Source of the DNA: Candidatus Roizmanbacteria bacterium
Lineage (GTDB): Bacteria; Patescibacteriota; Microgenomatia; UBA1406; GWC2-37-13
Assembly (NCBI GenBank): GCA_902200405.1
Contig: CABIKN020000045.1
Coordinates: forward strand, 1 to 33,697
Length of the DNA: 33,697 nucleotides
Direction of reading: 5' to 3'
Position numbers and translations under genes: made by a program. The notes under the pieces are model-generated. The model had not been told where the DNA came from. It searched no databases and saw only the letters and a program-made list of their open reading frames with translations. Shown here one piece after another: positions 4,811-14,650 of the stretch; positions within the stretch are counted from its first letter, which is position 1, and the number at the start of each line of letters is the position of its first letter.

Positions 4811-4882
4811 GCTCTTGTAGTTCAACGGATAGAATAGAGGTTTGCGGAACCTCTGATAGCAGTTCAATTCTGCTCGAGAGCA
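4811..4882 (+). tRNA. tRNA-Arg (anticodon GCG)
   Basis: Acceptor GCTCTTG with CGAGAGC, D stem GTTC/GAAT, anticodon stem GAGGT/ACCTC with loop TTGCGGA, T stem AGCAG/CTGCT, discriminator A, no encoded CCA. The anticodon reads GCG, for CGC/CGU codons. Most bacteria use ACG (edited to ICG) here, so this is unusual. The convergent DUF2207 gene ends 7 nt beyond its 3' end. Confidence 0.9.
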
Positions 4883-4889
4883 CAAATTT

Positions 4890-12222: not shown

Positions 12223-12822
12223 TCAAAACAGCTTCTCTTCTTTTACCTCAAACCTCTCCCCATCAAATTCAACAATAAGATATCCGGCATTTTTCATTGG
12301 TCTTTCTGTATATTCGGGAATTTTATAATCAACATAGCTTAAAAATGCTCGTAATAACCCACCATGGGTGACCATTAATACGTTTTTTCCAAGATAGTTA
12401 CTGGCTATTTTTTTCATAAAAGGAATTAAACGAGCAATAATACCTTCATCATTCTCTACATCAAAAAGTTGTAATTTTTTTTGCTTTTCTACTGTGATCA
12501 ACATTACTTCTCCAAACGTTTTTCTCAATTCAATCAAATGCTTTCCCTCAAATCTTCCAAAATTTCTCTCTCTTAAGGCTTTTATTGTTATAACTTTCAA
12601 TTTTTTTTCTGAAATAATAATTTCCGCAGAGTTTTTCGCCCGAAGAAGGTCAGAAGAAAAAACCGCGTCAAAATGAATATTTTTGAGCTCTTTACCCAAC
12701 TCCTTAGCTTGTTTTTCGCCTTTTTTATTTAGAGGAACATCCGTATGCCCTTGTATTAATTTTTTTTCATTCCAGTCTGTCTCCCCATGACGGGTAAGAT
12801 AGATAGTGCAGTATTTTTTCAT
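12223..12822 (-). CDS. Histidine phosphatase family protein (phosphoglycerate-mutase-like), paralog 1
   Basis: A 199-aa member of the histidine phosphatase superfamily: LTRHGETDW with catalytic His12, RERNFGRFEGK with the acid residue, and VTHGGLLRAFL with the second His. The size fits small cofactor-dependent phosphatases such as CobC/GpmB-like enzymes, so broad phosphatase activity is more likely than true glycolytic mutase. It overlaps its upstream paralog by 1 nt (TAATG). The two share the RHGE...QG...PLNKKG layout and arose by tandem duplication. Confidence 0.9.
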   Translation of the reverse strand: MKKYCTIYLTRHGETDWNEKKLIQGHTDVPLNKKGEKQAKELGKELKNIHFDAVFSSDLLRAKNSAEIIISEKKLKVITIKALRERNFGRFEGKHLIELRKTFGEVMLITVEKQKKLQLFDVENDEGIIARLIPFMKKIASNYLGKNVLMVTHGGLLRAFLSYVDYKIPEYTERPMKNAGYLIVEFDGERFEVKEEKLF

Positions 12823-13421
12823 TATTTTATCCCCTTTGTTTTCTCAATCTCAAAACTAACACCATCACTTATTAGTTGAACGTAAGATAAATTATTAATA
12901 TTACCTTCCGATAAATTTTTATAAATTCTAAAGCTCAAATTGATCAGAAAAAGCCTTATTGGACCGGCATGAGTGACTATTAAAATAGTTTTATCCAGAT
13001 TTTGAATAGAAACTTCACGTATGTAATTAATAAAACGTTTAATCACTTTTTGTTCATCTTCTACTTTTGCGTCCTTTTTTTCGTTTGTCTTTAAGTTATT
13101 AATAATTTCAAAAATTGCTTTACTTTTTTTAAAGGAAACTCCCTGGTATTTGCCAAAATGTCTTTCTCGAAGGGCTTTTGATTTAATTATCTTTAACTCT
13201 CTTTTACCGGCGATTATTTTAGCCGTTTCCGACGCCCTTTTTAAATCCGAAGAATAAATTAGGTCAAATTTTATTTTTTTTAATTTTTCGGATAATTTTT
13301 CCGCTTGCTCTTTCCCTTTTTTATTAAGAGGAATATCATTTTGTCCTTGAATCAGTTTTTTTACGTTCCACTCCGTCTCTCCATGCCGGGTAAGATAGAT
13401 GGTACAGTAATTTTTCTTCAT
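12822..13421 (-). CDS. Histidine phosphatase family protein, paralog 2
   Basis: A 199-aa protein with LTRHGETEW (catalytic His13), RERHFGKYQG and VTHAGPIRLFL, all hallmarks of the histidine phosphatase superfamily. The middle (residues ~95-130) differs most from paralog 1, which suggests a different substrate. Its start overlaps the stop of the deoxyribosyltransferase-like gene by 4 nt (ATGA), and its stop overlaps the start of paralog 1, so all three are translationally coupled. A role in nucleotide clean-up fits the neighbour, but is inference. Confidence 0.9.
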   Translation of the reverse strand: MKKNYCTIYLTRHGETEWNVKKLIQGQNDIPLNKKGKEQAEKLSEKLKKIKFDLIYSSDLKRASETAKIIAGKRELKIIKSKALRERHFGKYQGVSFKKSKAIFEIINNLKTNEKKDAKVEDEQKVIKRFINYIREVSIQNLDKTILIVTHAGPIRLFLINLSFRIYKNLSEGNINNLSYVQLISDGVSFEIEKTKGIK

Positions 13422-13771
13422 AAAAAGGAACTTAATTTTTTAATTAGATCATCAGAATCTTTATAGACAATAAATTTATCAGTTAATTTATTCAAAGAAT
13501 TTGAAAAGTTACTACCTTCTCTATGAGCACAAATTATTGGAATATTAAAAATATTACCCCAACCAAGTTCTATCCCCTGACCTGTTGAAGGATAAGAAAC
13601 TTCGGCAACAATGATATCTACATTTTTAATATCCTCTTTTGTGATAATTTTTTTTCCATTTTCTTGGGGAAGAAAGATAATATGTTTTTTATTTAATTCG
13701 GATTTTCTTAAAGGAATATACAATTTATTTTTAAAATCAAAATTACTTGAGTGAGCTACAAATATTTTCAT
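13418..13771 (-). CDS. Nucleoside 2-deoxyribosyltransferase-like protein
   Basis: A 117-aa protein of the nucleoside deoxyribosyltransferase-like fold: MKIFVAHSS at the N-terminus, VDIIVAEVSYPSTGQGIELGWG in the middle with the Glu expected to be catalytic, then IPIICAHREGS. The family cleaves or transfers nucleoside N-glycosidic bonds; short members are often of unknown specificity. The A of its ATG (13771) is the base after GCC at the 3' end of tRNA-Ser(ACU), so the start codon overlaps what would be an encoded CCA tail. It leads a coupled three-gene operon with the two phosphatases. Confidence 0.75.
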   Translation of the reverse strand: MKIFVAHSSNFDFKNKLYIPLRKSELNKKHIIFLPQENGKKIITKEDIKNVDIIVAEVSYPSTGQGIELGWGNIFNIPIICAHREGSNFSNSLNKLTDKFIVYKDSDDLIKKLSSFL

Positions 13772-13773
13772 GG

Positions 13774-13861
13774 CGGAGAGGGCGAGATTTGAACTCGCGG
13801 ACCCGCTGAGCGGGTCGGAGGTTTAGTAAACCTCTGCACTAGGCCACTATGCGACCTCTCC
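13774..13861 (-). tRNA. tRNA-Ser (anticodon ACU)
   Basis: Class II tRNA: acceptor GGAGAGG/CCTCTCC, D stem GCAT/GTGC, anticodon stem GAGGT/ACCTC with loop TTACTAA, long variable arm with GACCCGC/GCGGGTC, T stem GCGAG/CTCGC, discriminator G. The next three bases are CCA, whose A starts the downstream ATG. The anticodon ACT is very unusual in bacteria; a normal Ser(GCU) gene lies next to it. Confidence 0.9.
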
Positions 13862-13873
13862 AATACTACTCTG

Positions 13874-13959
13874 CGGAGGAGGTGGGATTTGAACCCACGC
13901 GAGTCTTACGACTCAGGAGTTTAGCAAACTCCCCGAATTGACCACTATCGGACTCCTCC
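13874..13959 (-). tRNA. tRNA-Ser (anticodon GCU)
   Basis: Class II tRNA: acceptor GGAGGAG/CTCCTCC, anticodon stem GGAGT/ACTCC with loop TTGCTAA, variable arm GAGTC/GACTC, T stem GTGGG/CCCAC, discriminator G, no CCA encoded. It lies 12 nt upstream of the Ser(ACU) gene on the same strand. Confidence 0.95.
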
Positions 13960-14037: not shown

Positions 14038-14283
14038 ATGTTGACTAAACGTACAAACATCTTATTTGAAGAGGAAGTATTTAGATATTTGGTTGCTTTG
14101 GCAAATAAAAATGGTACGTCCGTTGGTGATTTAGTCAGAAAGGCTGTGATTAAAGCCTATCCTAAAAAAATTAATGACAAAAGAATGGACGCTTATAATA
14201 AAATAATTAAATTAAAAAAAGGCTTAGGTAGAATAAGCGCTAAAGAAATAAAAGCGCTGGTAAACTATGGACGTCGATATTAA
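14038..14283 (+). CDS. vapB: Ribbon-helix-helix antitoxin (VapB-like)
   Basis: An 81-aa protein with a ribbon-helix-helix N-terminus: RTNILFEEEVFRYLVALANK gives the strand and first helix, NGTSVGDLVRKAVIKAY the turn and second helix. The basic C-terminal part would wrap the toxin. It has its own promoter and overlaps the PIN-domain gene by 17 nt, the usual antitoxin-first order. It likely represses its own promoter with the toxin as co-repressor, as is known for VapB proteins. The gene name follows from the PIN partner and is a class name, not an ortholog call. Confidence 0.85.
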   Translation: MLTKRTNILFEEEVFRYLVALANKNGTSVGDLVRKAVIKAYPKKINDKRMDAYNKIIKLKKGLGRISAKEIKALVNYGRRY

Positions 14284-14650
14284 AAATACTTTCGTGATTG
14301 ATGCTTCTTTTGTTCTCGCTTTTCTTTTGGATGAACATAATACTAGGGTGGAATCTATTTTTAAAAAACAGGCCCGAAGAGAAATTAATTTTATTGCTCC
14401 ATCAATTTTAAAATACGAAGTTGGAAATAGTTTGAGAACAAAACTTTTGAGAAAAAAACTAAAAAAAGAAAGAGCTCAAAAATTATATCAATCTTTTTTA
14501 GCGATCAATATTAAAGAAGAAGCACTAGATTTTTATGACGTCTTAGGTGTGGCTTTAGAAAAAAACCTGTCTTTTTACGATGCCTCTTATTTGTATTTGG
14601 CCAAAAATAATAAGATTAGTCTTCTATCTTTGGATCACTCGTTAAAGTAA
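14267..14650 (+). CDS. vapC: PIN-domain toxin (VapC-like ribonuclease)
   Basis: A 127-aa PIN domain with the four conserved acidic residues: Asp12 (FVIDASF), Glu51 (KYEVGN), Asp105 (FYDASY) and Asp123 (LDHSL). VapC toxins are Mg-dependent RNases, many of which cleave tRNAs. The gene ends 1 nt from the 3' end of tRNA-Leu(CAG), which is convergent, and the pair is bracketed by tRNA-Ser and tRNA-Leu genes. Activity looks intact because all acidic residues are present. Confidence 0.9.
   Translation: MDVDIKNTFVIDASFVLAFLLDEHNTRVESIFKKQARREINFIAPSILKYEVGNSLRTKLLRKKLKKERAQKLYQSFLAINIKEEALDFYDVLGVALEKNLSFYDASYLYLAKNNKISLLSLDHSLK

What the first reader, a model, noticed from the sequence alone, without database searches (positions are those of the whole stretch)
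13774..13861. tRNA-Ser with anticodon ACU beside a normal tRNA-Ser(GCU)
The loop TTACTAA on a sound GAGGT/ACCTC stem gives ACU. A34 in the Ser AGY/Arg AGR split box is nearly unknown in bacteria: if edited to inosine it could read AGA (Arg) as Ser. The neighbouring gene with TTGCTAA differs at exactly position 34, so this is probably a duplicated copy that changed its anticodon.
Basis: partly seen in the sequence, partly recalled or inferred. Interest (0 to 1): 0.55.

Follow-up and report, generated by a model that had tools for sequence, protein, structure and literature searches.

The report
Extra serine tRNA for AGU codons
This tiny bacterium carries a real extra serine tRNA whose anticodon starts with a plain A, a base that textbook bacteria almost never use there; the same gene recurs in many related bacteria and in some phages, and it most likely reads the serine codon AGU directly instead of by wobble.

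Summary
In detail: 13771-13861 (minus strand) is a sound type-II tRNA-Ser with anticodon ACU, beside tRNA-Ser(GCU). It is not a sequencing slip. The same tRNA occurs in 44 of 373 genomes sampled from the window's class (31 of 279 genera) and 23 of 379 sampled from its phylum; 116 of 116 stretches returned by a capped scan of GTDB genomes were confirmed, 91 bearing Patescibacteria (CPR) names. It also occurs in viral contigs and Salmonella phage Munch. Stems covary, G73 is kept, and with the anticodon masked 124 of 126 distinct genes have another ACU gene as nearest neighbour. It is therefore an old isoacceptor, not a recent copy of the neighbour (62% identical). The inosine reading is not supported: the window's genome has no detected TadA and no tRNA-Arg(ACG), and a published ACU test tRNA in E. 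coli was unedited, reading AGU but not AGC or AGA. Carriers use AGU over AGC more than non-carriers (+6.5 points given GC3, p=0.002; +7.5 with family effects, p=0.005); no other U/C codon pair shows this significantly. Best explanation: an unedited A34 tRNA dedicated to AGU, supplementing tRNA-Ser(GCU). No expression, charging or modification data exist.

The parts
13771..13861 (-). tRNA-Ser(ACU), CCA encoded; the gene of the finding
   Evidence: ARAGORN; Rfam RF00005 50.5 bits for 13774-13861; fold
13825..13827 (-). anticodon ACU; A34 is base 13827
   Evidence: sequence; ARAGORN anticodon position 35
13873..13959 (-). tRNA-Ser(GCU), the ordinary reader of AGC/AGU, 11 bases upstream
   Evidence: ARAGORN; 62% identical to the ACU gene outside the anticodon
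24051..24123 (-). tRNA-Arg(CCU), cognate reader of AGG and a competitor against misreading by ACU
   Evidence: ARAGORN
4811..4883 (+). tRNA-Arg(GCG), which takes the place of the inosine-edited tRNA-Arg(ACG) of most bacteria
   Evidence: ARAGORN; no ACG among the genome's tRNAs

Best explanation
The gene makes a serine tRNA with an unedited adenosine at the wobble position. Seryl-tRNA synthetase charges it through the long variable arm and G73, not through the anticodon (established knowledge). A34 pairs by Watson-Crick rules with the U of AGU, so the cell reads AGU without the G-U wobble that tRNA-Ser(GCU) needs; tRNA-Ser(GCU) still reads AGC. The usual danger of A34, conversion to inosine and misreading of AGA, does not arise because the editing enzyme TadA appears to be absent. 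Dedicated tRNA-Arg(UCU) and tRNA-Arg(CCU) compete for AGA and AGG. Shown here: gene, structure, conservation, co-occurrence with GCU, no detected TadA in this genome, and the codon-use association. Inferred: expression, charging, unmodified A34 and the decoding itself.
For: 1) Maintained gene: over 129 distinct ACU tRNAs, standard pairs at 900 of 903 acceptor, 644 of 645 anticodon and 640 of 645 T-stem cells, with many two-sided changes; G73 in 128 of 129; A37-A38 in 129 of 129 (A37-A38, the first acceptor bases and part of the T arm were demanded by the search pattern for nearly all). 2) Own lineage: with the anticodon masked, 124 of 126 distinct ACU genes have an ACU gene as nearest neighbour; 11 state changes on a 269-tip tree against a mean of 90 with shuffled labels. 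3) Supplement, not substitute: tRNA-Ser(GCU) found in 41 of 45 carrier genomes (32, 9 more). 4) No editor in G000: no match to the TadA model at E 1e-5; Arg tRNAs are GCG, UCG, CCG, UCU, CCU. PMC8629427 (passages) states that the CPR appear to lack tRNA-Arg(ACG). 5) In E. coli an orthogonal tRNA with anticodon ACU was unedited and reassigned AGU 9.4%, AGG 0.36%, AGC and AGA below detection (PMC11066159). 6) AGU/(AGU+AGC) is higher in 41 carriers than 38 non-carriers: +0.065 given GC3, p=0.002; +0.075 with family fixed effects, p=0.005; the six other U/C pairs show no significant pooled effect. 7) Codon count in the window: AGU 127, AGC 64.
Against: No RNA data of any kind. The codon-use effect is small and only marginal in the second, independent set of genomes (+0.061, p=0.083). 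Non-carriers manage without the gene, so it is not essential. Ten of 45 carriers have weak, sub-cut-off TadA-family matches, four of which I looked at and could not assign. The cut-off is no clean test, since only 5 of 14 control genomes passed it. Some carriers have low AGU use yet keep the gene.
Confidence: 0.75

Rival explanations
1. A34 is edited to inosine by a TadA-like enzyme, so the tRNA reads AGU, AGC and also AGA (Arg) as Ser, giving ambiguous translation.
For: A34-C35 is shared with tRNA-Arg(ACG). Ten of 45 carriers have weak matches to the TadA model.
Against: No match in the window's genome; 0 of 80 genomes over the cut-off. No ACG tRNA in G000. E. coli TadA left an ACU tRNA unedited and AGA reading was below detection (PMC11066159). 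AGA/Arg use does not differ between carriers and non-carriers (pooled effect -0.011, p=0.63). In two conserved window proteins, AGA codons fall on Arg/Lys columns of homologues at four sites and I saw none on Ser (read by eye).
Confidence: 0.06
2. The gene is a decaying or silent duplicate with no role in decoding.
For: Patchy distribution (44 of 373 and 23 of 379). No expression data. No terminator-like site found nearby, and promoter-like sites little above the shuffle mean (9 against 5.2, sd 2.3).
Against: Near-perfect stems with compensatory changes and G73 across 129 sequences; own lineage across many families; the window gene folds at z -5.0; codon-use association.
Confidence: 0.07
3. 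A34 is kept because it makes the tRNA resistant to an anticodon nuclease (VapC-like toxin or defence nuclease) that cuts tRNA-Ser(GCU), as proposed for phage tRNAs; AGU reading is secondary.
For: A PIN-domain toxin-like gene lies between tRNA-Ser(GCU) and tRNA-Leu(CAG) in the window and in a same-genus genome. Viral contigs carry the ACU tRNA. PMC10264068 (abstract and passages) proposes nuclease evasion by phage tRNAs.
Against: The PIN gene was found at 3 of 150 ACU loci searched, two of which are the same genome. The window's own tRNA has no similar phage tRNA at E 1e-5. Carriers keep the GCU gene.
Confidence: 0.07
4. The gene came into these bacteria from phages by recent transfer.
For: ACU tRNAs exist in viral contigs: 13 of 120 stretches in a scan open to A or G at position 34 (7 of the 80 rows listed are ACU; the rest inferred).
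Against: Of 129 CPR ACU genes, 128 have another CPR gene as nearest neighbour; the window's best viral match is 74% against 93% for CPR.
Confidence: 0.05

Closest known systems
tRNA-Asp-AUC of Streptomyces (PMC9262613; discussion section read)
   Same: A34 in a two-codon box, alongside the normal G34 isoacceptor, in bacteria lacking a helpful G34 modification; shown to aid GAU reading.
   Different: Different amino acid and box; there 0.7% of Streptomyces libraries and an odd anticodon stem, here a regular stem and a lineage spread over many families of Patescibacteria. Function there was tested, here not.
Orthogonal M. jannaschii tRNA(ACU) expressed in E. coli (PMC11066159; sections 12-13 and passages read)
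   Same: Same anticodon; unedited A34, reads AGU and not AGC or AGA.
   Different: Engineered tRNA with another body and amino acid, not a natural gene.
tRNA-Arg(ACG)/(ICG) edited by TadA
   Same: Bacterial tRNA gene with A34.
   Different: Edited to inosine in a four-codon box; in the window's genome neither it nor its enzyme was found.
Unmodified A34 tRNA-Thr of Mycoplasma (cited in PMC11066159, section 13)
   Same: Unedited A34 in a reduced genome.
   Different: Four-codon box, part of a shrunken tRNA set; here an addition to a full set in a split box.

Membership tests
bacterial tRNA-Ser | type-II cloverleaf with long variable arm | tested here: met
   7-bp variable arm
bacterial tRNA-Ser | discriminator G73 | tested here: met
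   sequence; 128 of 129 ACU genes
bacterial tRNA-Ser | charged by seryl-tRNA synthetase | not testable with these tools
   no biochemical data
inosine-34 tRNA (TadA substrate) | A at position 34 | tested here: met
inosine-34 tRNA (TadA substrate) | TadA encoded in the genome | tested here: not met
   no match in G000 at E 1e-5; assembly 93% complete, so a missed gene is possible
inosine-34 tRNA (TadA substrate) | ACG-type anticodon loop recognised by TadA | tested here: not met
   anticodon ACU; ACU unedited in E. coli, PMC11066159
unedited A34 tRNA in a split box (tRNA-Asp-AUC kind) | A34 in a two-codon box with the G34 isoacceptor also present | tested here: met
   41 of 45 carriers
unedited A34 tRNA in a split box (tRNA-Asp-AUC kind) | improves reading of the U-ending codon | tested here: inconclusive
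   codon-use association only
unedited A34 tRNA in a split box (tRNA-Asp-AUC kind) | expressed, with unmodified A34 | not testable with these tools
   no RNA data

The most novel reading that the evidence does not exclude
A natural, unedited tRNA-Ser(ACU) is a stable, lineage-spanning part of the decoding set of Patescibacteria (and recurs in phages), and because A34 also reads AGG weakly it brings a low level of AGG-to-Ser misreading that these genomes pay for by using AGG less. They would be a natural experiment on why A34 is otherwise shunned in split boxes. The AGG shift was seen in the first set of genomes (-0.047, p=0.017) but not reproduced in the second (-0.013, p=0.48).
Probability: 0.15. 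Interest if true: 0.75.

Novelty: new variant of a known kind. Interest (0 to 1): 0.52.

Why it matters
The paper read on this point says that unedited A34 tRNAs are essentially absent from living cells and asks why (PMC11066159, section 13). A natural A34 serine tRNA in a split Ser/Arg box, kept across many families of a group reported to lack tRNA-Arg(ACG), offers wild carriers and non-carriers in which the cost and benefit of A34 can be measured. It also warns that tRNA annotation should not discard Ser(ACU) calls in CPR genomes or phages.

Tried and rejected
Recent duplication of the neighbouring GCU gene: rejected, 62% identity. Sequencing error at A34: rejected, recurrence in other genomes. 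Link to the neighbouring toxin-antitoxin-like pair: only at 3 of 150 loci, two being the same genome. Link to the 117-aa ORF that starts on the tRNA's last base: no relative at the other loci. AGG avoidance: not reproduced. CGU/Arg and Phe effects seen in the first set also did not reproduce.

Failed tools: the first pattern for GCU tRNAs had a wrong fixed spacing and was replaced. The pattern for Arg R34-CG missed the window's own gene, so one search is a weak census; it gave G34 in all but three matches, all in one genus, and in the two of these that lie in held loci (L083, L084) ARAGORN calls no tRNA there. Two genomes (G034, G011) were dropped from the codon test after the first run because they had never been tested for the ACU gene with the pattern, and G242 for too little sequence. 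Literature searches for a natural bacterial tRNA-Ser(ACU) found none; the two Rafels-Ybern surveys that might list it are not held, so absence from print is not established.

Full report
What is there. The minus strand at 13771-13861 holds a complete type-II tRNA-Ser with anticodon ACU, G73 and an encoded CCA; 11 bases upstream lies tRNA-Ser(GCU). Rfam gives 50.5 bits and the RNA folds into the cloverleaf at z -5.0.

Whose genome. The window is one contig of a 1.18-Mb, 93% complete genome. A same-genus genome (G002) has a carrier contig that matches Candidatus Roizmanbacteria PEVZ01000061.1 in length and match position, so the window is very probably a Roizmanbacteria-like member of the Patescibacteria/CPR (inference). 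The 47 Rfam tRNA places in this genome were read with ARAGORN (one sub-threshold place was not called). Serine: GCU, ACU, GGA twice, UGA, CGA. Arginine: GCG, UCG, CCG, UCU, CCU. ACU is the only A34 tRNA found; there is no tRNA-Arg(ACG).

Conservation. In a first BLAST-type search 31 of 57 related genomes had some match, and ARAGORN on the 30 loci showed ACU in G002, G031 and G054 besides the window. In G002 the order ACU, GCU, Leu(CAG) is kept. A pattern for Ser-type tRNAs with YUACUAA then hit 44 of 373 genomes of the class (41 of 299 good ones, 31 of 279 genera; the reversed control pattern hit none) and 23 of 379 of the phylum, 8 of 32 in the window's class and 15 of 347 outside it. These are lower bounds, as the pattern demands GGAG and fixed loop bases. 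ARAGORN confirmed 30 of the 30 class loci given to it, of 44. Their record titles name Patescibacteria lineages in 91 by my count; 25 say only 'bacterium'. That most of these names belong to the CPR is recalled, except Elulimicrobium. Whether other phyla carry it is not settled, because the scan was cut off.

A real isoacceptor. Over 129 distinct CPR ACU tRNAs, pairs are standard in 900 of 903 acceptor, 644 of 645 anticodon and 640 of 645 T-stem cells, with changes on both sides at many pairs; G73 holds in 128 of 129. With anticodons masked, the nearest relative is another ACU gene for 124 of 126, and the best other class on average is UGA, not GCU (five other Ser genes were left out there because the anticodon could not be located by rule). 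On a 269-tip tree the ACU state changes 11 times against 90 for shuffled labels. Such short genes resolve poorly, so the number of origins is uncertain; a few ACU genes have different D-arms.

Not a copy of its neighbour. Window ACU and GCU genes agree at 52 of 84 positions; the ACU gene agrees 93% with ACU genes of other genomes and 87% with a tRNA-Ser(UGA).

Together with GCU. Of 45 carriers, 41 also have tRNA-Ser(GCU) (32, 9 more confirmed); two more (G304, G319) show a likely but unconfirmed match, and two (G235, G326) none.

Editing. With the NCBIfam TadA model, 0 of 80 genomes passed the cut-off; 35 of 45 carriers and 28 of 35 others had no match at E 1e-5, the window's genome among the former. 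Ten carriers had weak matches, several of RibD length; four checked remained unassigned deaminase-like proteins. The cut-off is harsh (5 of 14 controls passed, 12 rang). PMC8629427 (passages) says the CPR appear to lack tRNA-Arg(ACG) and use GCG instead. In E. coli, an ACU tRNA was not edited; it read AGU at 9.4%, AGG at 0.36%, and AGC and AGA below detection (PMC11066159, sections 12-13 and table). So the inosine path is unlikely.

Codon use. With a simple ORF caller on one or two stretches per genome, 41 carriers were compared with 38 non-carriers. AGU/(AGU+AGC) was 0.622 against 0.549; given GC3 +0.065 (p=0.002), with family fixed effects +0.075 (p=0.005). None of the six other U/C codon pairs reached p 0.05 in the pooled data. 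The first set (21 v 19) gave +0.069 (p=0.008), the second, new genomes (20 v 19), +0.061 (p=0.083). Many codons were tested, and CGU/Arg (+0.037, p=0.012) and AGG/Arg (-0.030, p=0.023) also differed in the pool but faded in the second set. I take AGU as moderate support.

The code is not changed. In MreB and an M16 peptidase of the window, AGA sites at MreB 50, 90, 176 and peptidase 120 align with Lys or Arg in solved homologues; others fall in variable places; I saw none on Ser (read by eye).

Phages. The same pattern hit at least 120 stretches of viral contigs, 120 of 120 confirmed, often inside tRNA arrays. In a scan open to A or G at position 34, 13 of 120 stretches are ACU (7 of 80 listed rows, 6 inferred from already-held loci; 107 of the 114 read are G). 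Salmonella phage Munch has one; three other phages checked had UGA instead. CPR and viral ACU genes form separate groups (128 of 129 CPR nearest to CPR; 60 of 71 viral nearest to viral).

Verdict. A new variant of a known, very rare kind: an unedited A34 tRNA in a split box, here for serine AGU, widespread in one large bacterial group. The closest tested precedent is tRNA-Asp-AUC of Streptomyces (PMC9262613, discussion read). My literature searches found no report of a natural bacterial tRNA-Ser(ACU), but key surveys are not held.

Noticed in passing
window 14040-14650, + strand: A small DNA-binding-like protein and a PIN-domain (PF01850) toxin-like gene, probably a VapBC-type pair, sit between tRNA-Ser(GCU) and tRNA-Leu(CAG); the same arrangement occurs in same-genus genome G002 (L004).
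   Followed up: partly
L061 (G143), L073 (G350), L085 (G227): Some CPR tRNA-Ser(GCU) genes have C instead of the near-universal U at position 33 (UCGCUAA loop).
   Followed up: no
viral loci L339-L458: Viral contigs carry tRNA-Ser(ACU), often in tRNA arrays, and a few other A34 tRNAs by ARAGORN: Leu(AAG) 7, Arg(ACG) 3, Asn(AUU) 2, Thr(AGU) 1, Gly(ACC) 1.
   Followed up: partly
window 13418-13771, - strand: A 117-aa ORF with no Pfam match starts with the last A of the tRNA's CCA; no relative at the other ACU loci.
   Followed up: partly
window 12223-13421, - strand: Two similar 199-aa ORFs in tandem; the second (12822-13421) is a histidine phosphatase (PF00300).
   Followed up: no
L094 and L095 (G000 contigs C20 and C70): The genome has two tRNA-Ser(GGA) genes, each on a contig with a tRNA-Leu(UAG) nearby; with 4.8% estimated contamination this may be a mixed bin or a duplication.
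   Followed up: no
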